From NCBI RefSeq assembly GCF_028993555.1, contig NZ_CP118611.1:1544001-1608000 (forward strand): DNA of 64,000 nt, read 5' to 3'. Made by a program: the position numbers and the translations under genes. The notes under the pieces were generated by a model. That model had not been told where the DNA came from and made no database searches. It saw nothing but the letters and a program-made list of their open reading frames with translations. Positions 7,090 to 26,015 of this stretch are shown here, piece after piece (position 1 is the stretch's first letter; every line of letters begins with the position of its first letter). Source of the stretch: Ensifer adhaerens. Its GTDB lineage: Bacteria; Pseudomonadota; Alphaproteobacteria; Rhizobiales; Rhizobiaceae.

Positions 7090-7100
7090 ATTTCACCATG

Positions 7101-7131
7101 CCCCTGGTTTGTCGCCCAGGCGAACCAGGGG
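7101..7131 (+). terminator. Stem-loop terminator candidate
   Basis: CCCCTGGTT (7101-7109) pairs with AACCAGGGG (7123-7131), and the loop can form a further short TCGC/GCGA stem. It begins 12 bp after the hydrolase stop codon. No T run follows, so it may act as a transcript-stabilising hairpin rather than an intrinsic terminator. Confidence 0.55.
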
Positions 7132-7288
7132 ACCTGCATCGTCCTGTCAGGACTCGTCTTCATGGGCGCACGGCGGGAGCGGTGCGCTCGCTTCAGGTCA
7201 TGCCGGGTGGCACCAGCGTCGACGGTTTCGTTGGCGCTGCAAATAAGAATGTTGCCAGGGCGCAAGCAATGGGGGGTAGCGGCATCCG

Positions 7289-7963: not shown

Positions 7964-7985
7964 ACGACGGCCACCGTCGTTTAGC
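7959..7985 (+). terminator. Perfect 12-bp hairpin between DUF1275 and ltrA genes
   Basis: GCTAAACGACGG (7959-7970) and CCGTCGTTTAGC (7974-7985) form a perfect 12-bp stem with a 3-base loop. The stop codon of the DUF1275 gene (7961-7963) is within the left arm. No T run follows. It lies about 20 bp before the ribosome-binding site of the next gene, so it could be a terminator, an RNA-processing site or an attenuator. Confidence 0.6.
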
Positions 7986-8019
7986 AGTCTCCAACCGCGA
8001 TCTCGAAGGGAGGTCGGCC

Positions 8020-9186: not shown

Positions 9187-9235
9187 AATCGGTCGCAAGC
9201 AAAGGGGTGGAGAAAAGTTGGGGAATCAAAGGGCC

Positions 9236-10469
9236 ATGTCGTCGTCAGCTACCATATCTGCGCGCAATCGGGGATTTCGCTCATCAATCACGCCGCTCCT
9301 TCTTGCATCAGGTCTGCTGACGACATGTGTCGCCGTCCCGATCGTATCTCGGTTCCAGCAGAACAGGCTTCAGCGGCGCAAATCGAGCACGTCAACCTTG
9401 CGCGTTTCTGGGGAGACGAGGTCACGCCCACTCTCCGTTCGCTCATCGCGCAGCAATACACGCAGACACGGCGTCGCCCACCGAGCGCAGTCAACCATGT
9501 CGACTTTCTTGCCATTTCGGGCGGTGGTGCGGACGGCGCGTTTGCCGCCGGATATGTGACGGGCTGGAGCGAAAGGGGCATCGACCGCAATTCGAGATCG
9601 TGACCGGCGTCAGCACCGTCGCTCTGGCGGCTCCCTTTGCCTTCCTTGGTCCAAGCCATGACAGGGAACTGCGCGAAGTTCTCACGCCGTATGGTGACCG
9701 TGATATCTATCGAAATCTCGGCCTGTTCGGAGTGATGGGGCATGGTCTCTACGTTAATTCACCGCTGCGGCAGTTGATCGGTCGCTATCTCACCGAAGAC
9801 ATGGTCGCCGAAATTGCCGCGCAGCACAGGATCGGCCGACGGCTGCTGATCCAGACCACCAACATTGATGCTCAGCGTCCTGTTGTGTGGGACCTGTCTG
9901 CAATCCCTGCCAGCGCGCGCGCCGATCGTCGAAAACGCATGATCGACATTCTGCTCGCGTCTGCGGCCATACCTGCGGTGTTCCCGCCCGTTTGGATCGA
10001 TGTGCGGCTGGACGGTCAAGCCAGGTAGGAATTGCATGTCGACGGCAGGACAGTGGCGCAGATCTTCTTTGCCCCTCCCAACATCGAACTCTCGGGATAT
10101 GAGAGGCGCTATTTCGGTCACACCCGCTCGCGAACACTCTATCTGATCCGCAACGGGCGCTTGACGCCCGAATACGCCGCGACCGAAGAAACCACACTGG
10201 GGATCGCCCGTCGCTGTATCGAGACGCTGATCAAGTATCAGGCGATATCCGATCTGGTGGGCCTACAACTCCAGACGACAGCTGCCCATGGTCAGCTTTA
10301 CTACGCATCGACCCGGGATCGGTTCACGCTGAGCCCGAAGTCCGAATTTGACCGAAGCCATATGCAACAGCTCTTCGCTGCCGGTTACGAGGAAGGTCGT
10401 CTTGGTCAGTGGCGCAAGCAGCCACCGCTTACGCCCGTGCAAGCGGCCGAGCGACGCAATCGTGGCTGA
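9236..10469 (+). pseudogene. Decayed patatin-like phospholipase
   Basis: Pieces of one patatin-family lipoprotein are spread over different frames. A lipobox-like leader (LLLASGLLTTC) runs from ATG 9236. The FLAISGGGADGAFAAGY oxyanion region is in another frame (around 9505-9560). The nucleophile region follows a second frameshift near 9585, and an in-frame TAG at 10026 interrupts the next section, after which the tail continues to 10469. The serine motif reads GVSTV instead of G-x-S-x-G and the aspartate motif HVDGR instead of DGG, so active-site residues are lost as well. This argues for real decay rather than sequencing error. Confidence 0.82.
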
Positions 10470-10992
10470 CATTCACGAAGGCACTGCAGCCTGAGCCACA
10501 GGCTGCAGTGCACCCGGAGGCGACGGCCAAGGCCTCGGCCGCGCTCCTCATTGCCTTCTTCAGAGGTGTACTCCATGTCGGTGCGCGACGCCGCCACCCA
10601 AACGCGCTGCTGTAAAACGCTCGGGCGTGATGCGCTTAACTGTTTGATTTCATGAATGCCGTTGTCGCAGAGCTACGGCGCTCTTACAAGCTTCAGTGGC
10701 AAGGCGGCGATCGCCGAGTTTGCCGATCTCGAAGACCCGCACCAGGACTATCCATTCTGAAAAGGAGCAGTTGCCATCAGCCGACACCAGCCTGAATGTA
10801 GGGAAAGGGGCCGATCACCCCTGCTCCACTTCTTTGTGTCCGGGCGGTTGATCGGTTGGAATGCCTGAGCACCGGCCAGACGATCCCGGTTTGGCAAGCA
10901 GAGGCCTTGCCCTGGAGCTCGGCGGCCTGGCACCAAAACGAAAACGGACAGCGACAATTCGCTGCCCGTTCCATATGTTCGCCTTGCGTGTC
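10470..10992. other. Non-coding region between pseudogene and amidohydrolase
   Basis: The 523 bp contain a 13-bp hairpin at the left end and no convincing gene. A 34-codon frame at 10656-10760 on the plus strand ends in EFADLEDPHQDYPF and may be the tail of a lost gene; it has no ribosome-binding site. The rest lies downstream of the convergent amidohydrolase gene. Confidence 0.45.
10481..10511. terminator. Perfect 13-bp hairpin
   Basis: GCACTGCAGCCTG (10481-10493) and CAGGCTGCAGTGC (10499-10511) are exact inverted repeats with a 5-base loop, starting 12 bp after the end of the patatin remnant. No T run is present. It is the likely former terminator of that gene. Confidence 0.55.
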
Positions 10993-12870
10993 TCACACGG
11001 CCCAGCATGAGCAGCCGAGTGCGCCGAAGAAGCCCTTGAGATCGGCGATCGGCAGCTTTGACGTCCAGGCGCCGGCATGGTCGTGGCCATGCACGCCGCA
11101 ATTGCTGGCGCAGCCGCAGGTCGTGATCGCCGTGCGCCGGAGCGAGTTCTTGCCGGCACCATCGGGCTCGCCCCAGGCGGCATAGCCGCCGAAGGTGCGG
11201 ACCGGCGACCAGTCGGGCATCGCCGGCGGCACCGGGTTGTCGTCGTGGGCGGCGAAGTCGCCGGCCGCATAGACGACCTTGCCGCCGACAACAGTCAGTT
11301 CCGAGGTCAGGAACGAGATCTCGTCCTCCGGGCAGGCGAAATAGTCCTTGTTCGGCACGATCAGGTCGGCAAACTGCCCCTTCTCGATCCGGCCCTTCTT
11401 GCCTTCTTCGTTGGAAAACCACTGCACCTTCTCGGTCCACATCCGAAGCGCCGTCTCGCGATCGAGGCAATTGGCGCGCGGATAGAGCTGCAGGCCGCCG
11501 ACGGTCTTGCCGGTCACCATCCACGACAGCGAGACCCAGGGGTTGTAGGAGGCGACCCGGGTGGCATCGGTGCCGGCCGACACGTTGACGCCCTTCTCCA
11601 GCATGCGGCTGATCGGTGGCGTCGCTTCCGCCACCCCGTGGCCGTAGCGTTCGACGAAATATTCGCCCTGGTAGGCCATGCGGTGCTGGGTGGCGATGCC
11701 GCCGCCCAGCGCGGCAATCCGGTCGATCGAGCGGTCGGAGATCGTCTCGGCATGGTCGAAGAACCAGTTCAGGCCTTCGAGCGGGATGTCCTTGTTGACC
11801 TTCTCGAAGACGTCGAGCGCGCGGCTGATGGTCTCGTCATAGGTGGCATGCAGCCGCCAGGGCCAGCGGTTCTCGGCCAGGACCCGGACGACCTCCTCGA
11901 GCTCGCCCTCCATCTCCGGCGCCATCTCGGGCCGCGGCTGGCGGAAGTCCTCGAAGTCGGCGGCCGAAAACACCAGCATCTCGCCGGCACCGTTGTGGCG
12001 GAAGTAGTCGTTGCCCTGCTTGTATTTGACCGAGGCGGTCCAGTGGAGGAAGTCCTCCTTCTCCTCCTTCGGTTTCTGGGTGAAGAGGTTGTAGGCCAGG
12101 CGAACGGTCAGCTGATTGTCATCCGAGAGCTTCTGGATGACGGCATAATCGTCCGGATAGTTCTGGAAGCCACCACCGGCGTCGATGACGCTGGTGATGC
12201 CGAGCCGGTTGAGTTCGCGCATGAAGTGGCGGGTGGAATTGACCTGGTAGTCGAAGGGCAGTTTCGGTCCCTTGGCGAGCGTCGAATAGAGGATGCCGGC
12301 ATTGGGTTTGGCCAAGAGCAGACCGGTCGGGTTGCCGTTGGCATCGCGGGTGATCTCGCCGCCCGGCGGGTTCGGCGTGTCCCTGGTGTAGCCGACCGCT
12401 CTCAGGGCGGCGCCGTTCAGAAGCGCCCGGTCATAGAGATGCAGCAGGAACACCGGCGTATCGGGGGCGATCGCATTGATCTCGTCGATCGTCGGCAGCC
12501 GCTTTTCGACAAACTGGTGTTCGGTAAAGCCGCCGACGACGCGCACCCATTGCGGCGCCGGCGTGATCGCCACCTGCCGCTTCAGCATCGCCATCGCATC
12601 GGCAAGCGACCGCACGCCGTCCCAGCGCAGTTCCATGTTGAAGTTGAGGCCGCCGCGCACGACGTGGGTGTGGTTGTCGTTGAGACCCGGCAGAACGCGC
12701 TTGCCCTTCAGGTCGATCACCTTGGTATCCGACCCGGCCAGCGCCATGATCGTCCGCTCGTCGCCGACGGCCAGGAACTTCCCGTCCTTGATGGCCACGG
12801 CGCTGGCCGTCGGATGGCTGCGGTCGAGCGTCGTGAAAAGGCCGTTGTGGAGGATGAGATCGGGCGTCAT
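10993..12870 (-). CDS. YtcJ-like amidohydrolase
   Basis: The 625-residue protein is a metal-dependent amidohydrolase of the YtcJ/exoenzyme-regulatory group. It has an N-terminal beta-sandwich, the HxH metal motif in NDNHTHVVRG, a histidine in WFFDHAETI and the catalytic aspartate in VSAGTDATR. A C-terminal tail of about 35 residues is rich in Cys and His (CGC...NCGVHGHDH...GCSCW). The substrate is unknown. ATG 12870 was chosen for its GGAG site and family-like MTPDLILHNG opening. The upstream same-strand neighbour is an XapX protein. Confidence 0.85.
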   Translation of the reverse strand: MTPDLILHNGLFTTLDRSHPTASAVAIKDGKFLAVGDERTIMALAGSDTKVIDLKGKRVLPGLNDNHTHVVRGGLNFNMELRWDGVRSLADAMAMLKRQVAITPAPQWVRVVGGFTEHQFVEKRLPTIDEINAIAPDTPVFLLHLYDRALLNGAALRAVGYTRDTPNPPGGEITRDANGNPTGLLLAKPNAGILYSTLAKGPKLPFDYQVNSTRHFMRELNRLGITSVIDAGGGFQNYPDDYAVIQKLSDDNQLTVRLAYNLFTQKPKEEKEDFLHWTASVKYKQGNDYFRHNGAGEMLVFSAADFEDFRQPRPEMAPEMEGELEEVVRVLAENRWPWRLHATYDETISRALDVFEKVNKDIPLEGLNWFFDHAETISDRSIDRIAALGGGIATQHRMAYQGEYFVERYGHGVAEATPPISRMLEKGVNVSAGTDATRVASYNPWVSLSWMVTGKTVGGLQLYPRANCLDRETALRMWTEKVQWFSNEEGKKGRIEKGQFADLIVPNKDYFACPEDEISFLTSELTVVGGKVVYAAGDFAAHDDNPVPPAMPDWSPVRTFGGYAAWGEPDGAGKNSLRRTAITTCGCASNCGVHGHDHAGAWTSKLPIADLKGFFGALGCSCWAV

Positions 12871-12917
12871 TGGTCGGCTCCAGGCTTCAAGTTTCAAGAT
12901 TGCAATGGAAGTTCGGG

Positions 12918-12938
12918 GTGGCGATCGGTCATCGCCAC
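12918..12938. other. Hairpin between XapX and amidohydrolase genes
   Basis: GTGGCGAT (12918-12925) and ATCGCCAC (12931-12938) form a perfect 8-bp stem with a 5-base loop in the short gap between two same-strand genes. It may modulate or partly terminate the transcript. Confidence 0.4.
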
Positions 12939-15343: not shown

Positions 15344-15538
15344 AGCATCCTTTGCGCGTTTGTCTGGACGCGCGGCGAACTGGCGTGTCGCGGATGGCCT
15401 AATCTCATCGCGTATGTGAAGACACTGACCTCGGGCGCAGCCGGAGAGGCGGTGCTCGATTCCACAAGATAATCCGAGGGACAGTCCCCTCGCCGTCCGC
15501 GAGCCTCCGCGCCCGCGGGCACCCATGCCAACATTGCC

Positions 15539-15584
15539 TTAAACCAAACCGCCGACGCTCGCTCTCGGGCGAAATTAAACCAAA
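15539..15584 (+). repeat. Two direct TTAAACCAAA repeats before the five-gene operon
   Basis: TTAAACCAAA occurs at 15539-15548 and again at 15575-15584, 36 bp apart, in the 240-bp gap upstream of the operon. The second copy ends at the first base of the assigned ATG (15584). They could be regulator half-sites; no other promoter element is clear. Confidence 0.35.
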
Positions 15585-16612
15585 TGTTTGCTCTCTCCCG
15601 CGAAGATGCGACCCAAGCTTGCACAAAGCTCCCTTCTAGAATCGAAGCTGCCGGGCCAGAGCCATTGTACAATCTGATATCGGTCGTGCTGAAGAAGCGC
15701 CTCGACCTCTCATTCAAGACATCACCAGATTTCCGCGCGAGGATCGTCGAAGCCCCCGGGCTGTGGATGAGCGAGCGGGACGTTGCCAGACTGCGACACG
15801 ATCTGCGCAAGGTCGCGCAGCGATCGGTTCCCGATGGAGAGCTGGACTATGGTGTCTTCTCCGAGCGTGAGGACGCCCTCGCCCGGACGATAGTGACGGT
15901 CGTCTATCGGGTTTCGGACGGCGAACCGGTCGCCTTCAATGCGTTGCCGGTCATCCAGGTCTCTCTCTCGGGCAAACCCGTGGACGTTCTTCACCTGGGG
16001 CTGGTGATGATCGACCCTGCAGTTCGCAGCCAGGGGCTTTCCTGGGTACTCTACGGCCTCACCTGCTTTCTTCTCTTCCTGCGCAACCAGCTTCGTCCGC
16101 TCTGGATTTCGAATGTCACCCAAGTGCCGGCCGTTGCCGGCATGGTGGCCGAGACCTTCAGTGGCGTCTTTCCGGCGCCCACGCGTGGCGCTCGCCGATC
16201 GTTGCACCAGCAACTGATCGCCACGGCGATCATGGGCTCTCATCGTCATGTCTTCGGCGTCGGTCCTGATGCCGGTTTCGACGCCGACCGCTTCGTGATC
16301 ACCAACGCCTATACGGGCGGCTCCGACAACCTGAAAAAGACCTTCGAGGCGGCGCCCAAGCACCGCAAGGCGGAGTACAACGACTTCTGCGCCACCGAAC
16401 TCGACTACGATCGCGGCGACGACCTCATCCAGATCGGCCAACTCGACCTCAACGCGGCGCAACGCTACCTCATGGAAAGCGTGCCGCGCAACGCACTCGG
16501 CCGCCTTGCGGTCGCAAGTTTCATCATCCTCGTCCAAAGGCTGGCTCTACCGGTTTTGCATTGGACGGACAGCCGTCGGCAGTGGGGCATATTGAGGCCT
16601 TCAAATCAATGA
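15584..16612 (+). CDS. Uncharacterised protein with acyltransferase (GNAT-like) motif, first gene of a five-gene operon
   Basis: I do not recognise this 342-residue protein with certainty. Residues 134-170 (VDVLHLGLVMIDPAVRSQGLSWVLYGL) look like the central strand and acyl-CoA or acyl-ACP pyrophosphate-binding turn of a GNAT fold, with RSQGLSW in place of the usual R/Q-x-x-G-x-G/A. N-acyl amino acid synthases (FeeM-like) share this type of fold, but that is only a guess. No signal peptide is seen. The assigned ATG lacks a clear ribosome-binding site, so the true start may be downstream. The stop overlaps the ThiF-like gene (ATGA). Confidence 0.65.
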   Translation: MFALSREDATQACTKLPSRIEAAGPEPLYNLISVVLKKRLDLSFKTSPDFRARIVEAPGLWMSERDVARLRHDLRKVAQRSVPDGELDYGVFSEREDALARTIVTVVYRVSDGEPVAFNALPVIQVSLSGKPVDVLHLGLVMIDPAVRSQGLSWVLYGLTCFLLFLRNQLRPLWISNVTQVPAVAGMVAETFSGVFPAPTRGARRSLHQQLIATAIMGSHRHVFGVGPDAGFDADRFVITNAYTGGSDNLKKTFEAAPKHRKAEYNDFCATELDYDRGDDLIQIGQLDLNAAQRYLMESVPRNALGRLAVASFIILVQRLALPVLHWTDSRRQWGILRPSNQ

Positions 16613-17496
16613 GCAGCGTCTTCTCCTACGAGGCCTTCACCACACGCAACGTCGGCTTTGTCACAGAGGCGGAGCAACGCCGCTTGAGCGAGGCGAGCGT
16701 CTTCGTCTGCGGAACCGGCGGCATGGGCGGCGCCTGCATCCAGGCGCTGGCGCGGGCCGGCATCGGCCGTCTGATACTCGCCGATATCGACCGTTTCGAA
16801 CTGTCGAACCTCAACCGCCAGGTCTTCTGTTTTGCCGACACGATCGGCACACCCAAGGCAGAAGCGACCCGCGATCTCTGCCTGAAGATCAATCCGGAGC
16901 TGGATATCACCGTCTTCGGGCCGGAATGGACAGATCATGTCGAGGCGCTCATTGCGAAAGCGGACGTCGTCATCAACGGAACGGATGATCTCGCCGCCAG
17001 TCTCCTGCTCTATCGTGTTTCGCGAAACCTCGGACGCACGGTGATCGATGCCTATGCGTCTCCCCTCCCCTCGGTCTACGTCACGCGCCCGCAGGATCCG
17101 ATGCCGGAAGAGCGGCTCGGCTATCAGACGGCCGGAACCGCCTGGAACGCGCTGACGGCGGATCAGCGGTCGGAAGCTTTCCTGCGCGAGGCGGAATACG
17201 TGATGGTCCATTCGTCTTCGCGCCACCATGTCGATCTTTCGCTCGCCGGCGAAGTGATTGCCGGCACCCGCAGTCGCATGTCCTTCGCACCGATGGTGAT
17301 CAGCACCGGCACATTGATGGCCTACGAGGCGATCCACGTGGTCATCGGCCGTCCACGGTCTGCCGATTACCGTGGCTGGTTCTTCAACCTCCATGCCGGC
17401 CGTGTCGAGCGTCCGCGCAATGCAATCGTCGCGGCCCTGCTGCGACCGCTGGTACGGCGCTACCTGCAGCGGCTTGCGGCTCCGACAGCGCCATGA
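16609..17496 (+). CDS. ThiF/E1-like adenylating enzyme
   Basis: The 295-residue protein has the E1/ThiF nucleotide fold: GTGGMG (35-40), acidic ADIDRFELSNLNRQ with D59/D61 and Arg70, Lys83 and the INGTDD strand end (123-127). Such enzymes adenylate a C-terminal carboxylate of a small protein or peptide, or of a small molecule. The zinc CxxC pairs and the downstream catalytic cysteine of ubiquitin-type E1s are not visible, so it is closer to TOMM-associated or small-molecule ThiF relatives. It overlaps both neighbours by 4 bp, implying tight coupling with an acyltransferase-like and a membrane protein. Confidence 0.85.
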   Translation: MSSVFSYEAFTTRNVGFVTEAEQRRLSEASVFVCGTGGMGGACIQALARAGIGRLILADIDRFELSNLNRQVFCFADTIGTPKAEATRDLCLKINPELDITVFGPEWTDHVEALIAKADVVINGTDDLAASLLLYRVSRNLGRTVIDAYASPLPSVYVTRPQDPMPEERLGYQTAGTAWNALTADQRSEAFLREAEYVMVHSSSRHHVDLSLAGEVIAGTRSRMSFAPMVISTGTLMAYEAIHVVIGRPRSADYRGWFFNLHAGRVERPRNAIVAALLRPLVRRYLQRLAAPTAP

Positions 17497-18692
17497 ACAC
17501 GCCGCTCGTTGCCGATAGTTTTGTTTCGCTGGCCGCACTTGGCGGCCTCCTTGTGCTGATCGGCACTATTCGTAGCTTCGATACGGCAAGCCCGCTGAAC
17601 CGCCGCTTCCTCTTTGGATTGGAGGTGTTGGCCGCATTGATGGCAAGCCGGGTGCTTGCCTGGTGGACCGATCTTTTCATCTTCAAGGCCACAACGATCA
17701 TAACTGCGGGCCTTGTTCCGCTCTCGACTGTTCTCCTCGCCGAGGGCCTGTTGCGCCGCCATGCGCCGAGGACGACGAAATGGATCGGAGCCGGGGGCGC
17801 CGTCGCCTTCTTCGTTCTCGCCTTCCTGCCGGCATCGATCGCCGAGCCCTGGCGCGTCGCGCTGCTTTTTGTCTATCAACTCGTCACCTTCGCTCTTGCC
17901 GGGCACATGACGGTAACGCGCGATCGGACAAGCCTGTCGAAGGCGGAGAACCAGGCGGTCGACCGCATCGCTCTCTCGCTGCTCTTGATCCTGCCACTCC
18001 TCGTCACCGATTTCCGCTCGGTCTACATCGACCAGCCTGTGCGGCTTGGCGGGGTGGCGATCCTGTTCCTGTGCTGGCTGCTGATCAGCCTTGGTCAGCG
18101 CGCCGTCGGGCATCGTGACACGGTCGTCTCCTTCGTCATCCTGCTCTCCGTTACCCTCATCGCAGCCCTTGTCATCGGTTTCGAAAACGGGCTCGAACCT
18201 GCAGCGCTGGTCCGTGCAACGAGCGTCATTCTCAGCGCCGCCTTGCTTGGCGTGATCTGGAAGGACAGCATCAGCCTGCGCACGGAACAAAGGCGGCAGA
18301 GCCTGATCCGGCATCTGGCCGAGGACCGCATCGACGACACACTCGGCTTCCTCAAGGAATTGCAAAACCACCCGTTGGTAGATGGCGCACTTCTGCTTGG
18401 TGAGGACGAACTTTCCGACCTCGACGTGCCGGTCATCAAGGCGCTGTTTGCTGCCCGACCTTTGATGCGCACGGCGGAAACGGGCAGCCTGCCGCAATCG
18501 GACGCCGAACAGCTCGCCTGGCTGCTCGAAAAATACGAAGCAACCCATGTCATGCTGGTGTCGAACCGGCCGTTCCGGCTGATAGCGCTCAATATGCCCT
18601 CCGTCACTGCGACGCCAGGTGCAGAGACCGAGTTGAAGGTCGTCCAGCGCATGGCCATGCTGATCTCCGAAAGGAACTCGCTCCATGATTGA
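17493..18692 (+). CDS. Polytopic membrane protein of unknown function
   Basis: The 399-residue protein has about nine hydrophobic segments within residues 8-255, then a soluble tail of about 140 residues starting around WKDSISLRTEQRRQSL. The tail has no histidine-kinase or GGDEF signature. The layout resembles a membrane sensor or a membrane-anchored scaffold, but no family is recognised. Its ATG overlaps the ThiF-like stop, and its own end overlaps the next gene by 8 bp. Confidence 0.75.
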   Translation: MNTPLVADSFVSLAALGGLLVLIGTIRSFDTASPLNRRFLFGLEVLAALMASRVLAWWTDLFIFKATTIITAGLVPLSTVLLAEGLLRRHAPRTTKWIGAGGAVAFFVLAFLPASIAEPWRVALLFVYQLVTFALAGHMTVTRDRTSLSKAENQAVDRIALSLLLILPLLVTDFRSVYIDQPVRLGGVAILFLCWLLISLGQRAVGHRDTVVSFVILLSVTLIAALVIGFENGLEPAALVRATSVILSAALLGVIWKDSISLRTEQRRQSLIRHLAEDRIDDTLGFLKELQNHPLVDGALLLGEDELSDLDVPVIKALFAARPLMRTAETGSLPQSDAEQLAWLLEKYEATHVMLVSNRPFRLIALNMPSVTATPGAETELKVVQRMAMLISERNSLHD

Positions 18693-19791
18693 GATCCACG
18701 CGGGGGATATCGACGCCTTCTTCACCGCCCCCTTTCAGATCTATGGTGCGCAGACGCCCTATGTCTCGCCGATGTTCAGCGACCTCAGGCGCTTCCTTTC
18801 CGCTGAAAAGAACCCTCTGTTCGATACGGCTGCAGACTTCGCCATCTTCACGGCCCATGAAGGAAGCGCCGTGCGCGGGCGGATAACGGCCCATATGCAC
18901 CGCGCATCGAACGCGAAGTTTGGGCTTGATCGCGGCTATTTCGGCTACTTCGACAGCGCCGACGACGAGCGCATTGCGGCTGCCCTGCTGGAGCGGGCGG
19001 AGGATTGGGCGCGAGCGAAGGGGTTTGGCGAGATCCTTGGAAACTTCAACCTGACTGCCATGCAGCAGGCGGGGGTCATGACTGGCGGTTTCGAGAATGC
19101 GCCCTATACGGATCAGATCTGGGGCCCACCCTATCTGCCTCGGCTTCTGGAAAAGCGGGGCTACGCCCCCTGCTTCCCGATGACCACCTTCGAAATCGAC
19201 GTCCGCACCGTGGCCACCGATGGCATGCTCGCCGGCACACAGATGCGCGCGCTTTTCGACGACGGCTTCCGTTTTTCACCAATCCGGCGAGCAACGCTTG
19301 AGCGCAGGTTGGAGGATTCCCGGCTGATCCTCAATGAGAGCTTTGCAGACAATCCGATGTTCGTGCCGGTCAGCCGTGCGGAATTCGACTTTCAGGCCAG
19401 GGAGATGAAGTGGATCATGGATCCGCGCATCTCGGCGGTTGCGGAAAAGGACGGCGCGCCAGCCGGCGCGGTGATCGCCATACCCGACGTCAACCCGATG
19501 TTGAAGGCGATGGGCTCGCGGCTCGGGTTGAGTGCGCCCTGGCATTTGCTCAAGCATCGCCTCCAGCGCCGGCGTGCCGTAATCATATTTCAGGGCGTGA
19601 AGCCGGAGCATCAGGGGCGTGGTCTCAATCCACTTCTGCTTGCCCACGTGCTTAGCGAAATGCGCCGGGCCGGCTATGAGACTGCCGGCGGCACCTGGAT
19701 CGCAGACGTCAATGCGGCGAGCCTGAGGCAGGCAGAAAAAGCCGGCGCAAGGCCCCTGCATCGTCTGCATCTCTTCGGAAAGACACTATGA
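18685..19791 (+). CDS. GNAT-family N-acyltransferase, YghO-like
   Basis: The 368-residue protein resembles the YghO type of large GNAT proteins. An N-terminal half includes YFGYFDSADDERIAAALLERAEDW and a GNFNLTAMQQAGVMTGGF segment, and a C-terminal GNAT core has the acyl-CoA loop PEHQGRGLNPLLL (about residues 310-325). The acceptor substrate is unknown. It lies within the overlapping five-gene operon, sharing 8 bp with the membrane protein gene and 4 bp with the nitroreductase-like gene. Confidence 0.8.
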   Translation: MIEIHAGDIDAFFTAPFQIYGAQTPYVSPMFSDLRRFLSAEKNPLFDTAADFAIFTAHEGSAVRGRITAHMHRASNAKFGLDRGYFGYFDSADDERIAAALLERAEDWARAKGFGEILGNFNLTAMQQAGVMTGGFENAPYTDQIWGPPYLPRLLEKRGYAPCFPMTTFEIDVRTVATDGMLAGTQMRALFDDGFRFSPIRRATLERRLEDSRLILNESFADNPMFVPVSRAEFDFQAREMKWIMDPRISAVAEKDGAPAGAVIAIPDVNPMLKAMGSRLGLSAPWHLLKHRLQRRRAVIIFQGVKPEHQGRGLNPLLLAHVLSEMRRAGYETAGGTWIADVNAASLRQAEKAGARPLHRLHLFGKTL

Positions 19792-20807
19792 GCCGCATTG
19801 ATGCCGCCACGCTCGCCGATCTGGCGGCAGAAGCCAATCTCGCCCCCTCCGTCCACAATACCCAGCCGGCCCGCTGGGCGCTCGACGGGGACGGACGCAT
19901 TTTGCTCGCGGCCGACCTCTCCCGGCATCTCGGAATCGGCGATCCGACCGGTCGCGACATGGCGCTCTCCTGTGGCACAGCGCTCGAAGGCATGGTGATG
20001 GCGCTCGCCGCGCATGGGCTCGGTGTGGCCATCGAAGATCTCTGGGCCGACAACATTCTCGACTGGCGGCGCGGTTACCGATTGTCCGCGCGGCTGACAC
20101 TTGCGGGCGATGCAAAGCCGCACGAGCTTTCCGGCTGGATCACCAGGCGCTTCACATGGCGTGCTCGCTTTTTGGCCGCCGCACCCGAACAGGTCACACG
20201 GCTTGAGCACTGGGCGGCGGAAGCGGCTGATGTAAAGCTCGCCAGCGGTCACGAGGATCTGGCCTTTGTCGCCCGGCTGAACGACCACGCGAGCTTGTCG
20301 ATCATGCGCGAGCGCGCGTTCCGCGATGAACTCGTGGCGTGGATGCGGCTTTCTCCCTCCCATCCGACCTATGCCTTGGACGGGCTCAATCTTGCCGCCC
20401 TGCAGATGGGCCGGCTGGAAGGCGCACTGGCGGGACATGTGCTCGCTTCGCCGCTTTTCGACATTGCCGACCGGCTCGGCCTCGGTCGAGCTCTCGTCGC
20501 CGAAGCCGCGAAGTCGATGACCGCCACGGCTTGTCTCCTGTTTCATCGGCCGGAGAGCGAAAGCCCGATCGCTTCAGGACGGGCTTTCTATCGTTTCTGG
20601 CTAGGCTTCACGCGCTTTGGCTTCGCCGGCTGGCCGATGGCGGTGCTGGCTGATCGGCCCGATGCCACAGAGGCCTTGCAGCAGCGCTTCCCATTGCCGC
20701 CTGGCCACCGGCTGATCAATGTACTGCGCGTTGGGCCGGCTCCGTCGACAGTTCCGAAATATCGCATCCCGGTACAGGACCTCGTGCTGGACGGAAAGCC
20801 GGCCTGA
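19788..20807 (+). CDS. Acg-like nitroreductase-family protein
   Basis: The 339-residue protein opens with the APSVHNTQPARW motif (about residues 19-30), characteristic of the Acg/nitroreductase superfamily, and contains a later duplicated half-domain. Acg proteins bind flavin but lack a proven catalytic reaction; related FMN dehydrogenases oxidise azolines in peptide natural products. The ATG overlaps the stop of the GNAT gene. It is the last gene of the operon and ends 20 bp from the convergent acyl-ACP synthetase gene. Confidence 0.8.
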   Translation: MSRIDAATLADLAAEANLAPSVHNTQPARWALDGDGRILLAADLSRHLGIGDPTGRDMALSCGTALEGMVMALAAHGLGVAIEDLWADNILDWRRGYRLSARLTLAGDAKPHELSGWITRRFTWRARFLAAAPEQVTRLEHWAAEAADVKLASGHEDLAFVARLNDHASLSIMRERAFRDELVAWMRLSPSHPTYALDGLNLAALQMGRLEGALAGHVLASPLFDIADRLGLGRALVAEAAKSMTATACLLFHRPESESPIASGRAFYRFWLGFTRFGFAGWPMAVLADRPDATEALQQRFPLPPGHRLINVLRVGPAPSTVPKYRIPVQDLVLDGKPA

Positions 20808-20827: not shown

Positions 20828-23800
20828 TCAGGCAGCGTTCTCGGTCCTTGCAGCCTCGGCGAGAAGCCTCTGCGCACTGACGAAATCCACCTTGCCGGTC
20901 CCAAGCACCGGCACGGCACCGACCTTCACGTCCGACGGCACCATCATGTCCATCGCCCCCTTTTCCTTGGCGAAGCGCAGGAATGTGGCGCGCGTCGCGC
21001 CGGGAGCGTCGGTGAGCATGACCAGGCGTTCGCCCTTCTTGGCATCAGGCAGGGATACAACGACCGTCAAATGACCCGGCCACAGCTCTCCTGCAAGCGC
21101 CTCCACAGCACCGAGCGAAACCATCTCGCCACCGATCTTGGCGAACCGCTTGGCCCGACCGCGAATGACGATGAAACCGTCTTCGTCCACGGTGACGATA
21201 TCACCGGTGTCATGCCAGCCGTCTGGCGTCGGCTCGATCACACCGGGATTTTCCACGCGGAGATATCCGGCCATGACGTTTGCGCCTCGGATGAAGAGCC
21301 GTCCACCCTCCAGGACGCCCGGCACGGCTTCGAGCCTGTACTCCATGCCCGGCATGATCTTGCCGACGCTGCCGGCCTTGTTGAACATCGGCGTGTTCAG
21401 CGCGATCACCGGTGCGGCCTCGGTGACGCCGTAGCCTTCGAGGATGCGGACGCCGAACTTCTCCATGTAGAGCGCGCGTGTGGCGGCCCTGACCGGCTCG
21501 GCACCGGCGAAGCAGTAGCGGATCGAGCGGAAGTCGTAGGGATGGGCCGTCCGCGCATAACCGTTCAGGAAGGTGTCGGTCCCGAAGATGATTGTCGCGT
21601 TGGAAGCGTAGATCAGTTCCGGAATGATGCGGTAGTGCAGCGGCGACGGATAGAAATAGACCGGCACGCCGGAGATGAGCGGCAAGACCGTGCCCGCCGT
21701 GAGCCCGAAAGAATGGAACACCGGCAGGATGTTGAACACCTTGTCGCCCGAATGGAAATCGATACGGGACGCTGCCTGCGCTGCGTTGGAGAGGATGTTT
21801 CGGTGCGTCAGCACCACGCCTTTCGGCGTTCCTTCGGAGCCGGAGGTGTAGAGAATGACGGCCGGATCGTCAGCCGTGCGTCGGACAAGCGGCCGGCCTT
21901 TTCGCAAGAGACCACGCAGCTTGTCGGCAAGGCCGACCGTCTGGCGCAGGTCATCGAGCCAGACGATCTCCACCGTCTTCGACAACTCCTCCACGACCGT
22001 ACCGAGCTTCGCCTGGGTGACGAAGGCTCGCGACGTCAGCACGTAGCGGACCTCTGCCGCCTTGCACGCCGATATGATGTTGGCCGCGCCCGCCGTGAAG
22101 TTCAGCATCGCCGGTACCTTGCCCGCCGACATCACGCCGAGGATGGTTGCGACCGCACCGTTGGCGTTGGGCAGGAGAACGCCGAGCGCCTTTTCGTCCG
22201 GGAAGAGCGACTTGAACTTCGCGCCAAGCACGGCTGCCCCCGTCAGCAGTTTGCCATAGGTCAGGGAGCCGGTGACCGGGTCCTGCACCGCGAGCCGGTT
22301 GAACCCGCGCTCCTTGGCCGTCTTGATCACCTTTTCAAGCACAGTGGTGTCGGTATCCGTGGTGCGGAACATCAGCATCGACATGACCTGATAAAGAGCT
22401 GCACCCGCGGCCATCCGGCGCTTGCGACCTTTCAGCTCCTGCGGCACGGAGAGACGAACCGGCTCCAGAATGGTGACCTTCACCTTCGGAAACAGCCGGC
22501 GGCGAACGTGCAAGGAACTGAGGCGAGAGAAGTAGCTCTTCTCCAGACCGTCGATACGGACGGGCACGACCATGGAGCCGGTCTTGTCGGCCACCATTGC
22601 GGCACCGTCATAGACCTTCATCAGCGCACCGGTGACCGTGATGCGACCCTCGGGGAAGATCACGAGCGGCTCGCCATTGTTGACCGTCTTGATGAGCGTG
22701 CGCGTTGCCATCGGCTTTGAAGGATCCAGCGGCAGGAAGTTGCACATCTTCAGGAACGGTTTCACCCACCAGGCCTTGGCGATGGTGTAGTCGACAGCGA
22801 AGGTCGGTTCCTCGTCGGTGAGCGCGAGCGCCAGCGCGCCATCGAGAAAGGAAACGTGGTTGAGTGCGATGATCGGCGCACGCCCCGCCTTTTTCAGATT
22901 GTCGAGGCCGTCCACTTCCAGCCGAAGGAAGGCACGGAAGAGGATGGATACGAAATCACGGAAAGCATTGGTCGGCAGCGTGCGCAGCATGACAAAGGCC
23001 GCCACGGCATTGGCGAGCGCAAGGCCGGCGAAAAGTACTGATGTCGACACGCCGGACGCCTGCAAGACGGCGACAAGGCCGCCACCGGCGGTGATGAAGG
23101 CTGCGGACAGCACATTCGACGCACCGATGACGCGCGATCGCTCGTCCTCTTGCGCCCAGGCCTGAAGGGCCGCGAGCGTGGGTACGGCAAGGAAGGCGCC
23201 GGCAATAGCCATGCCAGCCAGATCGATGGCGATGCGCAGGGTGTAGGGACCGGCGAAGAAAGCAGAAAGCGTCTCGGTCGGAGCGACCGCCCCGGCATGC
23301 CCGACGCACCAGGCGAGATCGAGGCCGAACAGCGCCATGATCAGCGTGCCGAGCGGTGCCGGCAGGAGCACGATACGTCCCGCGGACATCCAGGCGGCAA
23401 TCGCCGAGCCGACCCCGATCGCTACGGCGAAGACGGCGAGATAGGCGGTGATCGCAGTCTCGTCGCCGCCGAGATGGTTCTTCACCATGGGCGGCAGCAA
23501 CGACAGCACGATCGCGCCCGCCAGCCAGAACCACGCCGCCATCAACGCGGTGCGCCAGAGCCGCTTGTCGCCGCGCAGTGACGCGAGGAGGTGTCCGGTG
23601 GAACGCAGGACGTTGCGATCGACGACAAGGTCCGGCGCCTTGGCGCCGAGACGTGGAATGTAGCGGCTGGAAAGCCAGCAGGCGAGTGCAAGGCCGAGCA
23701 TCATCGGGCCAAACAGCCAGGGATTGACGCCATCGGCTGCGGCAAGCCCCGCGACGACTGTGCCGCCGAGGATGGCGATGAACGTCGCCCCCTCGATCCA

Positions 23801-24226
23801 GGCGTTGGCACGCGGCAGTTCCTTGCGCTCCAGGTGGTCGGGCAGGATGCCGTATTTGACAGGCCCAAAGAGCGCGGAGATGGCACCGAACAGGAAGAGC
23901 GCAACCAGCAGCACCGCGATGGAGGAGAACGCAATGCCGACGACGGCAACACCCGCGGCAGCGAGTTCCCAGCGCTTCAGCCGCTCGGCGACGACCGCCT
24001 TGTCGAACTTGTCGGCAATTTGGCCACCGAGTGCGGAAAAGAGCAGGAACGGCGCCATGAAGACGGCGCCGGCCAGTGTGACGAGCGACCCCGCCTCTTC
24101 GGCTGCCACGGTGGCAAGGATGAGGAAGACGAGCGTGTTCTTGAGAAAATTATCGTTGAACGCCGACAGGAACTGCGTCCAGAAGAGTGGCGCAAACCGC
24201 CGAGAAGTCATGAGATTGTTTTTCAC
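20828..24226 (-). CDS. Fused lysophospholipid MFS transporter / acyltransferase / acyl-ACP synthetase (Aas-type)
   Basis: This 1132-residue fusion has three parts. Residues about 1-420 form an LplT-like MFS transporter of 12 helices. Residues about 430-620 form a PlsC acyltransferase with the H-x4-D motif NHVSFLDGA (near 455) and FPEGRITVTG (near 523). Residues about 640-1130 form an AMP-forming ligase with ILYTSGSEGTPKG (near 794). In E. coli LplT and Aas together take up lysophosphatidylethanolamine and re-acylate it with acyl-ACP made in place; here they are one chain. The start is GTG with an AGGGGAGA site; an ATG lies five codons in. It is downstream of yiaA and pspA genes. Confidence 0.9.
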   Translation of the reverse strand: MKNNLMTSRRFAPLFWTQFLSAFNDNFLKNTLVFLILATVAAEEAGSLVTLAGAVFMAPFLLFSALGGQIADKFDKAVVAERLKRWELAAAGVAVVGIAFSSIAVLLVALFLFGAISALFGPVKYGILPDHLERKELPRANAWIEGATFIAILGGTVVAGLAAADGVNPWLFGPMMLGLALACWLSSRYIPRLGAKAPDLVVDRNVLRSTGHLLASLRGDKRLWRTALMAAWFWLAGAIVLSLLPPMVKNHLGGDETAITAYLAVFAVAIGVGSAIAAWMSAGRIVLLPAPLGTLIMALFGLDLAWCVGHAGAVAPTETLSAFFAGPYTLRIAIDLAGMAIAGAFLAVPTLAALQAWAQEDERSRVIGASNVLSAAFITAGGGLVAVLQASGVSTSVLFAGLALANAVAAFVMLRTLPTNAFRDFVSILFRAFLRLEVDGLDNLKKAGRAPIIALNHVSFLDGALALALTDEEPTFAVDYTIAKAWWVKPFLKMCNFLPLDPSKPMATRTLIKTVNNGEPLVIFPEGRITVTGALMKVYDGAAMVADKTGSMVVPVRIDGLEKSYFSRLSSLHVRRRLFPKVKVTILEPVRLSVPQELKGRKRRMAAGAALYQVMSMLMFRTTDTDTTVLEKVIKTAKERGFNRLAVQDPVTGSLTYGKLLTGAAVLGAKFKSLFPDEKALGVLLPNANGAVATILGVMSAGKVPAMLNFTAGAANIISACKAAEVRYVLTSRAFVTQAKLGTVVEELSKTVEIVWLDDLRQTVGLADKLRGLLRKGRPLVRRTADDPAVILYTSGSEGTPKGVVLTHRNILSNAAQAASRIDFHSGDKVFNILPVFHSFGLTAGTVLPLISGVPVYFYPSPLHYRIIPELIYASNATIIFGTDTFLNGYARTAHPYDFRSIRYCFAGAEPVRAATRALYMEKFGVRILEGYGVTEAAPVIALNTPMFNKAGSVGKIMPGMEYRLEAVPGVLEGGRLFIRGANVMAGYLRVENPGVIEPTPDGWHDTGDIVTVDEDGFIVIRGRAKRFAKIGGEMVSLGAVEALAGELWPGHLTVVVSLPDAKKGERLVMLTDAPGATRATFLRFAKEKGAMDMMVPSDVKVGAVPVLGTGKVDFVSAQRLLAEAARTENAA

Positions 24227-24318: not shown

Positions 24319-24597
24319 TTAAGCGTCGTCGGCCTTGATGCCGAGCAGCAGCTTCTCGGTTTTCGCATCATCGATCCTGCGGATCAGCTTTTCAGCTTCC
24401 AGATTGTCGCGCAGCGTCTTGGTGACGTTTACCGCCGTCTGCAGGAGCATCAGAATGCCCATGGCGAGATACCCTTTTCCCCAGAGATCGATCGGCATCA
24501 TGTAAAGGCCGATCACCACCATGAAGGCGGCCACGCCGAAGCTCACATAGGAGAAAGAGGTCCAGGCCGGGGAGTGTTTCATCAGGCTGTCGTTCAT
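24319..24597 (-). CDS. YiaA/YiaB-family inner membrane protein
   Basis: The 92-residue protein has two hydrophobic helices (SYVSFGVAAFMVVIGLYM and GYLAMGILMLLQTAVNV) around WGKGYLAMGI, followed by the KTLRDNLEAEK tail seen in the YiaA/B two-helix domain. Its function is not established. ATG 24597 follows AAAGGAAAACG and is preferred over in-frame upstream starts that overlap pspA. It sits 28 bp after pspA and 92 bp before the Aas-type fusion on the same strand. Confidence 0.85.
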   Translation of the reverse strand: MNDSLMKHSPAWTSFSYVSFGVAAFMVVIGLYMMPIDLWGKGYLAMGILMLLQTAVNVTKTLRDNLEAEKLIRRIDDAKTEKLLLGIKADDA

Positions 24598-24625: not shown

Positions 24626-25312
24626 TCAAGAAGCAAGGTTCGCCTTGGCACGCAGGCGCCCGAGCACGTCGTCCGCACTCGTCACCAGCGGGCGCCCGCA
24701 ACCGGCCGCGGCCAGTTTCTCTGCAAGCGCGGTCGGATCAGGCCGGTCTTCCAGCTCAACCAGCGCCTCGGCTGTCAACTCAGCCTCGCGCCGGCGCGTT
24801 TCGAGCCGCGCCAGTGTTGCCTCGGCATCGCTGAGCGTAGCGAGGTCATTGCCGGGCACGTCACGGGAAAGCCGCCGCGTCCGGTCACGTGCCTCGGCCA
24901 GGCGTTCGCCGCGGCGCAGCGCGGCCAGGCGCATTTCGCTCTGCCGCACCGCCTGCCTCAACCGGTCTATTCCATCTGTAAACTCCGCCTGAACCTGACG
25001 TGCGTTCTGCAGTTCGGTTTCCAGCCGGGCGATCGAGACGGCAGCCTCGGTCGCCAGATCCTCCCGCCCCTTTTCAAGGGCTGCGATGGCGCGCGTTTCG
25101 AGATCATCGATGCGAGCAGAGAGCCTCTCGGCACTTTCTTTTTCCAGGCGATTTTGCGCGATCGCAACAGCGACCGCCCGACGTGCGCTTTCGACGCCGC
25201 GTGCGGCATCACGGATCTGCTGCGCAAGTATCGGCAGCGCATGCCGATCGCCGAAGGCCTCCTCCGCCTCATGGGCACGCCCCCGTATCAGCGTTACGAT
25301 TTGTTTGAACAT
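24626..25312 (-). CDS. pspA: PspA/IM30-family envelope stress protein
   Basis: The 228-residue protein opens with MFKQIVTLIRGRAHEAEE and is almost entirely charged, heptad-like coiled coil (about residues 25-190), the layout of PspA/IM30. These proteins bind stressed inner membranes and repair or stabilise them. ATG 25312 is preceded by GGAGGTGAGGAA; the upstream in-frame ATG is less well placed. No pspF is nearby; instead the gene is divergent from a TetR across three TGAAC-N3-GTTCA palindromes, so it is probably the first gene of a TetR-controlled pspA-yiaA-aas operon. Confidence 0.85.
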   Translation of the reverse strand: MFKQIVTLIRGRAHEAEEAFGDRHALPILAQQIRDAARGVESARRAVAVAIAQNRLEKESAERLSARIDDLETRAIAALEKGREDLATEAAVSIARLETELQNARQVQAEFTDGIDRLRQAVRQSEMRLAALRRGERLAEARDRTRRLSRDVPGNDLATLSDAEATLARLETRRREAELTAEALVELEDRPDPTALAEKLAAAGCGRPLVTSADDVLGRLRAKANLAS

Positions 25313-25329
25313 TTCCTCACCTCCATGTA

Positions 25330-25397
25330 TGAACAATGTTCAATAATCTTTTCTCACAAAGATGAACAGCGTTCAAGATAAAAATGAACGACGTTCA
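25330..25397. promoter_or_regulatory. Three palindromic TetR operators TGAAC-N3-GTTCA
   Basis: Exact 13-bp palindromes occur at 25330-25342, 25363-25375 and 25385-25397, with cores AAT, AGC and GAC. Centre-to-centre distances are 33 and 22 bp, multiples of 11, so all face one side of the helix. The first is 17 bp upstream of the pspA start and the third is 15 bp from the tetR GTG. TGAAC half-sites also occur in DesT/FabR-type operators for lipid genes (recalled). A degenerate relative, TGAAAGTCGTTTCA, is at 24259-24272 before the Aas gene. Confidence 0.85.
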
Positions 25398-25412
25398 TAA
25401 ATGAGGTTAACG

Positions 25413-26015
25413 GTGATCGGAAAGCGTCAGACGAAGAAGGAAGACCTGAAGGCAAGGCTGATTGTCGCCTGCACGGAACTCATGCGCGAACAGGGGCTGA
25501 AGAACCTGCGCGCGCGCGATATCGCCGAACGCGCCGGCGCCGCGCTCGGCGGTCTCTACACGGTCTTCGATGATCTCGACGAGTTGGTTCTCCACGTCAA
25601 TTCGGGGACGTTGAAACAGTTGGAGACCGCGCTCAACGCCGCGATCTCGCCGTCAGCCGCCATTGGGGAGACTTTCCTCAGCCTGTCCCTCGCATACATG
25701 CGTTTCGCGCTTGCCGAGCGCAACCTGTGGTCCGCGCTTTTCGAACACAGAATGCCCGAGGGTGTCTCCGTTCCGGAGTGGCACCTTGCCGAACACACCT
25801 TCCTGATCGGGCTCATTGCAGTCCCACTCGCGCGGCATATGCCCAATGCTTCTCACCAGGACGTGGCAATTCGTGCGCGCACATTCTTCGCGGCCGTCCA
25901 TGGCGTGATCTCTCTCAGCCTTGAAGGACGGTTTGTCGGAATAACGCCCGAAGTGCTTGAGCGCGAGATCACAGCGCTCGCCGGAATTCTCGCCGGGAGT
26001 TTTACCGTGGAATGA
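25413..26015 (+). CDS. TetR-family transcriptional regulator of the pspA-yiaA-aas operon
   Basis: The 200-residue protein has an N-terminal TetR helix-turn-helix (LRARDIAERAGAALGGLYTVFDDLDEL) and a mixed C-terminal ligand domain with WHG-like features (RNLWSALFEHRMP). GTG at 25413 is chosen because GAGG stands 6 bp before it. The ATG at 25401 has no ribosome-binding site and nearly abuts the third operator. The divergent layout and triple operator imply repression of both itself and pspA; an acyl or membrane-lipid ligand is a guess from the Aas neighbour. Confidence 0.88.
   Translation: MIGKRQTKKEDLKARLIVACTELMREQGLKNLRARDIAERAGAALGGLYTVFDDLDELVLHVNSGTLKQLETALNAAISPSAAIGETFLSLSLAYMRFALAERNLWSALFEHRMPEGVSVPEWHLAEHTFLIGLIAVPLARHMPNASHQDVAIRARTFFAAVHGVISLSLEGRFVGITPEVLEREITALAGILAGSFTVE

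What the first reader, a model, noticed from the sequence alone, without database searches (positions are those of the whole stretch)
15584..20807. Five-gene overlapping operon: acyltransferase-like, ThiF/E1-like, membrane protein, YghO-like GNAT, Acg-like nitroreductase
Every junction overlaps (ATGA at three, 8 bp at the fourth), which indicates one tightly coupled system. An E1-like adenylating enzyme, two acyltransferase-type proteins, a flavin-type nitroreductase and a nine-helix membrane protein are not a pathway I know. E1 plus nitroreductase recalls azole-peptide biosynthesis, but no YcaO or precursor peptide is visible. The acyltransferase-like genes and the convergent acyl-ACP synthetase suggest an acylated amino acid or lipid-linked product (inference).
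Basis: partly seen in the sequence, partly recalled or inferred. Interest (0 to 1): 0.75.

Follow-up and report, generated by a model that had tools for sequence, protein, structure and literature searches.

The report
Acyl-amino-acid operon with membrane partner
Five overlapping genes in a soil bacterium most likely make a fatty-acid-decorated amino acid and close it into a small ring, like a recently described family of bacterial lipids, but with a different first enzyme, an unknown membrane protein as steady companion, and membrane-stress genes often nearby.

Summary
The five-gene operon is real: three ATGA overlaps and one 8-bp overlap. Among the 80 loci kept of 243 relatives, 37 carry all five genes in the same order, including Rhizobiaceae, Roseobacteraceae, Devosiaceae, Lysobacter and one Acidobacteriota MAG.

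The triad of acyltransferase, ThiF and nitroreductase matches published pathways: acyl-oxazolones (OxzAB, TyzABC, TrzAS) and dehydro-N-acyl tyrosines. By analogy the operon N-acylates an amino acid, cyclises it with ATP (ThiF) and desaturates it with a flavin oxidase. This rests on homology and context; no product was measured.

It is a variant, not a plain member. Gene 1 has a GNAT fold but no match to the FeeM acyltransferase family. The ThiF forms its own deep clade. A nine-helix membrane protein of no named family (gene 3) accompanies gene 1 in 80 of 80 loci, even in the 26 where ThiF, GNAT and nitroreductase are absent. So genes 1 and 3 look like the core and genes 2 and 5 a linked tailoring pair.

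In 30 of 80 loci PspA and YiaAB, an envelope-stress protein and a small membrane protein, lie nearby, in three arrangements. This makes the open question of what such lipids do testable.

The parts
15584..16612 (+). Gene 1: GNAT-fold acyltransferase-like protein, proposed N-acyltransferase; start more likely at 15665 (TTG)
   Evidence: conserved GNAT-type loop 'DPAVRSQGLSWVLYGL'; present in 80 of 80 loci
16609..17496 (+). Gene 2: ThiF/E1-like adenylating enzyme, proposed ATP-dependent cyclase; no CxxC motif
   Evidence: PF00899 2.2e-36; N-terminal half aligns with E. coli MoeB 1jw9; CxxC in 0 of 52 homologues; tree
17493..18692 (+). Gene 3: nine-helix membrane protein with C-terminal alpha/beta domain, family unnamed
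   Evidence: downstream of gene 1 in 80 of 80 loci, directly or after gene 2
18685..19791 (+). Gene 4: GNAT family N-acyltransferase, optional
   Evidence: PF00583 1.9e-9; at 70% coverage or more in 37 of 80 loci, each with genes 2 and 5
19788..20807 (+). Gene 5: Acg-like single-chain FMN oxidoreductase, proposed O2-dependent desaturase
   Evidence: NF047509 7.6e-42, 143.9 bits against a cut-off of 199; Acg structure 2ymv 2.7e-9 over residues 2-83
20828..24226 (-). Convergent acyl-[ACP]-phospholipid O-acyltransferase (MFS + acyltransferase + AMP ligase); neighbour, possible acyl supply
   Evidence: NF005291 over cut-off; adjacent in 19 of 80 loci; same 6 of 16 genus genomes as gene 1
24319..24597 (-). 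YiaA/YiaB inner-membrane protein, associated neighbour
   Evidence: PF05360 1.7e-17; 30 of 80 loci; RefSeq name in PDNC004
24626..25336 (-). PspA/IM30 family protein (start may be 25312), associated neighbour
   Evidence: PF04012 8.2e-28; 30 of 80 loci in three arrangements
25401..26015 (+). TetR-family regulator, divergent from pspA
   Evidence: PF00440 and PF13305
25330..25397 (.). Three perfect TGAACNNNGTTCA palindromes (25330-25342, 25363-25375, 25385-25397), proposed TetR operators of the pspA/tetR promoter
   Evidence: not tied to gene 1

Best explanation
The operon makes an N-acylated amino-acid lipid of the oxazolone / dehydroamino-acid kind. Proposed steps: (1) gene 1 transfers a fatty acyl group from acyl-CoA or acyl-ACP to the amino group of an amino acid (inferred from the GNAT fold, the conserved loop, and being the only acyltransferase of the operon in the 14 four-gene loci without gene 4); (2) gene 2 adenylates the carboxylate with ATP and closes the ring to an oxazolone (homology to ThiF cyclases; not assayed); (3) gene 5, an Acg-like flavin oxidase, introduces the alpha,beta double bond with O2 (homology; not assayed); (4) gene 4, where present, acylates further or broadens substrate use (guess); (5) gene 3 is the obligate membrane partner of gene 1: it holds gene 1 at the membrane, or senses or releases the lipid (inferred from the 80 of 80 association, nine helices, conserved Arg/His on the loops predicted to be cytosolic, and the C-terminal domain). 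Where genes 2, 4 and 5 are missing, genes 1 and 3 would make the plain N-acyl amino acid. Shown here: gene order, modular co-occurrence, homologies, predicted folds. Inferred: every chemical step and the physiological role, for which the recurring PspA-YiaAB neighbours suggest membrane stress.
Against: Gene 1 does not match FeeM (PF21926) or TIGR03694, and profile-profile comparison with four such acyltransferases finds nothing (E 0.16, reversed control 0.26); the PDB second look is led by GCN5-type acetyltransferases. Genes 2 and 5 score below the NCBIfam cut-offs of PRK08223 (114 of 266), PRK07877 and NF047509. The branch joining gene 2 to the five ThiFs is not among the starred ones (94/88), those five were picked because they score best against a gene 2 profile, and the gene 2 clade sits on a long branch. 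Plain BLAST of gene 5 against the L127 oxidase gives only 0.069 (profile comparison 3.5e-6). The cluster descriptions I read mention no counterpart of genes 3 and 4 (the membrane gene flanking tyz is mmpL9; not compared). In 26 of 80 loci the core stands without genes 2 and 5, so ring chemistry is not the core function. No product, substrate or activity was measured.
Confidence: 0.52

Rival explanations
1. The core pair (genes 1 and 3) is a membrane-lipid acylation or sensing unit that acts on a membrane lipid or protein, and genes 2, 4 and 5 are a separate accessory unit with its own product.
For: Genes 1 and 3 stand alone in 26 of 80 loci. In the two distant class genomes G312 and G370 genes 1 and 3 are neighbours and no match to genes 2, 4 or 5 was found in the 15-16 kb fetched (my gene caller can miss genes, as it did in L129). 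Mesorhizobium ES1-1 (L034) keeps genes 1 and 3 with only remnants of 2, 4 and 5 (11, 20 and 47% of the query). Presence or absence of genes 2+5 needs 8 changes on the gene 1 tree, the three mixed loci left out. PspA and YiaAB nearby.
Against: In full loci gene 2 lies between genes 1 and 3 with its two junctions at 10 nt or less in 34 of 35 each, which argues for joint control.
Confidence: 0.2
2. Gene 2 activates a small protein or peptide (sulfur carrier or ribosomal peptide) and the operon modifies a polypeptide.
For: ThiF/MoeB relatives usually activate protein C-termini (established knowledge); gene 2 aligns with MoeB over residues 23-130.
Against: The overlapping junctions leave no room for a carrier gene; the ORFs of 20 aa or more before gene 1 look non-coding (judged by eye); no YcaO among the proteins scanned; CxxC in 0 of 52 homologues.
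Confidence: 0.07
3. The end product is an open-chain N-acyl dehydroamino acid (thalassotalic or kyonggic acid type), the oxazolone being at most a transient intermediate, and serves as an extracellular signal or surfactant. (This differs from the best explanation only in the final form and its role.)
For: In Stieleria, Massilia kyonggiensis and Thalassotalea ThiF and nitroreductase genes go with open-chain 2,3-dehydrotyrosines and no oxazolone was observed (PMC12479983).
Against: TrzS yields detectable oxazolone in vitro and in cells (PMC12856293); nothing here tells the two outcomes apart.
Confidence: 0.15

Closest known systems
TyzABC of Mycobacterium tuberculosis (tyrazolone pathway)
   Same: Three separate genes for acyltransferase, ThiF cyclase and a nitroreductase-superfamily flavin oxidase (PMC10404671)
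   Different: TyzA is on the opposite strand and structurally FeeM/AHL-synthase-like; gene 1 here is not detectably of the FeeM family; a second GNAT and a relative of gene 3 are not mentioned there (the flanking membrane gene is mmpL9)
OxzAB of Pseudoalteromonas rubra and TrzAS of mycobacteria
   Same: Genes 2 and 5 match the two halves of the Rv1355c (TrzS) fusion model
   Different: ThiF and oxidase are separate, with genes 3 and 4 between them, instead of fused; scores below family cut-offs. OxzAB known to me only through the papers that cite it
NasY - ThiF - nitroreductase clusters of Stieleria, Massilia and Thalassotalea
   Same: Same three functions; short gaps or overlaps in Thalassotalea and M. 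kyonggiensis; loci without ThiF and nitroreductase exist (M. umbonata) (PMC12479983)
   Different: No membrane partner mentioned in the parts read; gene 1 was not compared directly with NasY sequences
PEP-CTERM/exosortase-associated acyltransferase TIGR03694 loci
   Same: The ThiFs closest to gene 2 among those scanned include ones beside or within 3-4 kb of a TIGR03694 acyltransferase (4 of 5)
   Different: Gene 1 has no TIGR03694 match; gene 3 is not shown to be related to the PEP-CTERM kinase PrsK (inconclusive)
Phage shock protein (PSP) envelope stress systems
   Same: A PspA/IM30 gene lies near the cluster in 30 of 80 loci
   Different: The PSP survey (PMC11237479; term search of the main text only) has no occurrence of YiaA, ThiF or acyltransferase; in the window the proposed operator is at pspA/tetR, not at gene 1

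Membership tests
Acyl-oxazolone pathway (Oxz/Tyz/Trz) | FeeM/AHL-synthase-type amino acid N-acyltransferase gene in the cluster | tested here: not met
   Gene 1: no PF21926 or TIGR03694 match; hhalign against four FeeM-type proteins E 0.16, reversed control 0.26. GNAT fold only
Acyl-oxazolone pathway (Oxz/Tyz/Trz) | ThiF-superfamily adenylating enzyme next to or fused with a flavin-dependent oxidase | tested here: met
   Genes 2 and 5 in one operon, two genes apart; together in 51 of 80 loci, same order
Acyl-oxazolone pathway (Oxz/Tyz/Trz) | ThiF belongs to the same family as TyzB/TrzS/OxzB | tested here: inconclusive
   Matches PRK07877 (TrzS model) 1.6e-13 and PRK14851 4.3e-25, both below cut-off; joins PRK08223-like ThiFs at 94/88. 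TyzB, TrzS and OxzB sequences were not fetched
Acyl-oxazolone pathway (Oxz/Tyz/Trz) | Acg-like single-chain FMN oxidase (FDO) | tested here: inconclusive
   NF047509 7.6e-42 over nearly the whole model, but 143.9 bits against a cut-off of 199; 2ymv 2.7e-9 over residues 2-83; FDO-A or FDO-B subgroup not determined
Acyl-oxazolone pathway (Oxz/Tyz/Trz) | N-acyl oxazolone product | not testable with these tools
   Needs mass spectrometry
ThiF/MoeB sulfur-carrier E1 | Dedicated ThiS/MoaD-like carrier gene and CxxC zinc site | tested here: not met
   No room at the junctions and no such ORF before gene 1 by eye; CxxC in 0 of 52 gene 2 homologues; that CxxC marks the zinc site is recalled
Azole-modified ribosomal peptides | YcaO and precursor peptide in the cluster | tested here: not met
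   No YcaO among the seven proteins scanned; no precursor-like ORF at 15344-15670 (by eye); wider flanks not scanned for YcaO
PSP envelope stress system | Operon under the same regulator site as pspA | tested here: not met
   TGAACNNNGTTCA (1 mismatch or fewer) in the 350 bp before gene 1's aligned start in 0 of 30 loci with pspA, and none before gene 1 in the window

The most novel reading that the evidence does not exclude
Genes 1 and 3 are a new two-protein membrane system found across Alphaproteobacteria: an unrecognised GNAT-fold N-acyltransferase bound to its own nine-helix membrane partner, which makes an N-acyl amino acid lipid in the inner membrane and reads or regulates it through its C-terminal domain. 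Genes 2, 5 and 4 are plug-in tailoring enzymes that convert the lipid to an oxazolone, and the system belongs to a TetR-PspA-YiaAB membrane-stress response, giving bacterial oxazolones a physiological role.
Probability: 0.22. Interest if true: 0.78.

Novelty: new variant of a known kind. Interest (0 to 1): 0.56.

Why it matters
The authors of the tryptazolone paper call the physiological role of oxazolones a major unresolved question (PMC12856293, Discussion). Here a related gene set in soil bacteria comes with a constant membrane partner and, in 30 of 80 loci, with PspA and YiaAB nearby. Knock-outs with lipid analysis and membrane-stress tests in Ensifer would tie product, partner and stress together. 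It also points to a second family of candidate amino acid N-acyltransferases outside FeeM: for example, no candidate gene for the synthase of N-acyl alanine methyl esters in Roseovarius had been found (PMC11580390, passages). That link is a lead only; Roseovarius was not searched.

Tried and rejected
Azole-peptide reading: set aside, no YcaO among the scanned proteins and no precursor-like ORF before gene 1.

Housekeeping ThiF/MoeB: unlikely; another ThiF-family gene scores far higher in the same genome and gene 2 lacks CxxC.

Gene 1 as FeeM family: not found by Pfam, NCBIfam, PDB sequence search or hhalign. FeeM 2g0b did not appear in the fold lists shown; that says little.

Acyl-ACP synthetase as a dedicated partner: it co-occurs with gene 1 in the same 6 of 16 genus genomes, but so does PspA, so this shows a co-inherited block, not a specific link; a match to the upstream LysR gene is in 15 of 16.

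TetR operator controlling the operon: no site before gene 1 in 30 of 30 loci tested. Before pspA, 6 of the 9 Bradyrhizobium loci have no site within one mismatch and the other 3 a one-mismatch site. Allowing one mismatch, three sites in the 64-kb window are not beyond chance by number alone (17 of 100 shuffles had as many); that all three are perfect, lie within 68 bp and recur in relatives is the argument.

Decay of gene 1 in genus relatives: one search listed an internal TGA in L003, L004 and L006. In L003 it is at query residue 21, before the likely true start; in the other two tblastn alignments, from residues 22 and 24 on, hold no stop. So no sign of decay.

First neighbourhood count by HMM on stop-to-stop frames was contaminated by overhangs and was replaced. 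One search (Rv1355c model, 299 genomes) returned matches in 224, none over the cut-off, so it does not count oxazolone clusters. Only 18 of 52 gene 2 homologues plus the window went into the ThiF tree; the 16 'other' ThiFs in it were not individually named, and the five 'close' ones were chosen by their score to a gene 2 profile. Of those five the context of one (L129) could not be read with my simple gene caller, and in two (L130, L131) the FeeM-type acyltransferase is 3-4 kb away, not adjacent.
Full report
OBSERVATION. The five ORFs and the overlaps are as stated: ATGA at the gene 1/2, 2/3 and 4/5 junctions and 8 bp at 3/4. Gene 1 probably starts at 15665 (TTG): relatives begin there, the RefSeq gene in Ensifer sp. 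PDNC004 is 945 bp, and in one genus relative a TGA lies in frame before that point. The PDNC004 record shows the same order: hypothetical, ThiF, hypothetical, GNAT, hypothetical, acyl-[ACP]-phospholipid O-acyltransferase, YiaA/YiaB, PspA/IM30, WHG-domain protein.

CONSERVATION. A scan of genome contigs with a gene 1 profile confirmed 243 relatives and kept the best 80. With tblastn at 70% query coverage or more, 80 of 80 have genes 1 and 3. Patterns: all five 37; genes 1 and 3 alone 26; 1-2-3-5 14; 1-2-3 2 (one, L054, ends at a contig edge); 1-3-5 1. The order is the same in all 80. Genes 2 and 5 are both present in 51, both absent in 26, split in 3. Gene 4 occurs only with both (37 of 51). 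On a gene 1 tree (quick method, several long branches) presence of genes 2+5 needs 8 changes, the three mixed loci left out, and gene 4 among the 2+5 loci needs 3. L034 (Mesorhizobium ES1-1) keeps remnants of genes 2, 4 and 5 beside genes 1 and 3. In an independent draw of 385 genomes of the class, gene 1 and gene 3 were found in the same 3, the window's own genome included. Among 61 relatives gene 1 is in 6, all of the window's genus (6 of 16). Because only the 80 best relatives were read, the 80 of 80 figure may not hold for the remote ones; the two most remote read, G312 and G370, do have both.

KNOWN PATHWAY. TyzA acylates L-Tyr/L-Phe, TyzB (ThiF) cyclises with ATP and TyzC (nitroreductase superfamily) desaturates with O2 (PMC10404671: abstract, introduction, part of the results and passages seen). 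TrzA and the ThiF-oxidase fusion TrzS do the same for tryptophan (PMC12856293: abstract, introduction, part of the results, passages and discussion seen). Clusters of acyltransferase, ThiF and nitroreductase go with open-chain dehydrotyrosines in three genera (PMC12479983: abstract, introduction and part of the results seen). The original OxzAB paper is not held and is known to me only through these. Genes 2 and 5 match the two halves of the Rv1355c (TrzS) model and of PRK14851, the pattern expected of two proteins that are fused elsewhere, though all scores are below the curated cut-offs.

GENE 2 TREE. Nineteen gene 2 rows (18 of 52 homologues plus the window) form one clade (99/99) that joins five other ThiFs at 94/88 (not starred), apart from 16 further ThiFs. 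The five were picked because they score 106-115 bits against a gene 2 profile, the other 16 scoring 56-79. Of these five, L127 lies in a run FeeM-type acyltransferase - ThiF - nitroreductase (2194-3012, 1311-2171, 201-1295, one strand); L128 is beside a FeeM-type acyltransferase; L130 and L131 have one 3-4 kb away; L129 could not be read. Three of the five were scanned and pass the PRK08223 cut-off; gene 2 does not (114 against 266). So gene 2 looks like a deep relative of the acyltransferase-linked ThiFs, not a member of that model.

WHERE IT DIFFERS. Gene 1 does not match FeeM or TIGR03694, while the four comparison acyltransferases match both; hhalign of gene 1 with them gives 0.16, reversed control 0.26, whereas the same method gives 2.5e-25 for gene 2 and 3.5e-6 for gene 5 against their L127 counterparts (plain BLAST for gene 5 only 0.069). 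I found no counterpart of gene 3 or gene 4 in the parts of the papers that I read; the tyz locus is flanked by the transporter gene mmpL9, which I did not compare.

NEIGHBOURS. PspA and YiaAB lie within the flanks in 30 of 80 loci: convergent downstream in 19 (8 Rhizobiaceae, 5 Phyllobacteriaceae, 3 Roseobacteraceae, 1 Stappiaceae, 2 without a family name), inverted downstream in 2 (L019, L026), and co-directional upstream of gene 1 in all 9 Bradyrhizobium loci. In L066 the order is pspA 8666-9370, yiaAB 9413-9688, gene 1 from 9839 or later, gene 3 10927-12126, all on one strand. Proximity kept through three arrangements speaks for a link, but inheritance within families lowers the number of independent cases, and no chance rate was computed. 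The pspA/tetR promoter of the window holds three perfect TGAACNNNGTTCA sites, 3 of the 6 places in the 7.77 Mb genome (2 for the backward control). By number alone, one mismatch allowed, three sites per window are not rare (17 of 100 shuffles). Exact sites occur in 22 of the 80 loci (three in 19; five, two and four in L019, L020 and L026) and three in each of six genus loci, one of them the window's own. None lies before gene 1 in 30 of 30 loci, so shared regulation is not shown. Seventeen loci, each with genes 2 and 5, have a cytochrome c convergent downstream, among them Lysobacter and the Acidobacteriota MAG; three of the 17 were scanned and match RoxA-like cytochrome c.

JUDGEMENT. What it works like: an oxazolone or dehydro-N-acyl amino acid pathway, probability about one half for the chemistry as proposed. 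Whether it is a member: not as defined, since the FeeM-type acyltransferase is missing. I file it as a new variant. The most interesting part is the constant gene 1 - gene 3 pair, for which I saw no description in the listings of the six paper searches made, which cover open-licence papers only.

Noticed in passing
window 25330-25397: Three perfect palindromes TGAACNNNGTTCA between a TetR-family gene and pspA-yiaAB; exact sites in 22 of 80 loci (three copies in 19) and in 6 genus loci, one of them the window's own; a likely autoregulated switch.
   Followed up: partly
L018 15190-16884 (-) and 16 other loci: Cytochrome c gene of 543-578 aa (RoxA-like, PF21419, in the 3 of 17 scanned) convergent downstream of gene 5 in 17 of 80 loci, each with genes 2 and 5.
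   Followed up: partly
L034 (Mesorhizobium sp. ES1-1) 10951-12937: Remnants of genes 2, 4 and 5 next to genes 1 and 3, as if the tailoring genes were lost recently.
   Followed up: partly
L003, L004, L006: TGA noted by the tool inside gene 1 matches of three genus genomes; in L003 it lies before the likely true start, in the others no stop remains in the aligned part. Supports the later start.
   Followed up: yes
L086: One Bradyrhizobium locus has all five genes while the other eight have only genes 1 and 3.
   Followed up: no
L132 (G312) 7147-9323 and L133 (G370) 5831-8007: Distant gene 1 - gene 3 pairs without a match to genes 2, 4 or 5 in the stretch fetched.
   Followed up: no
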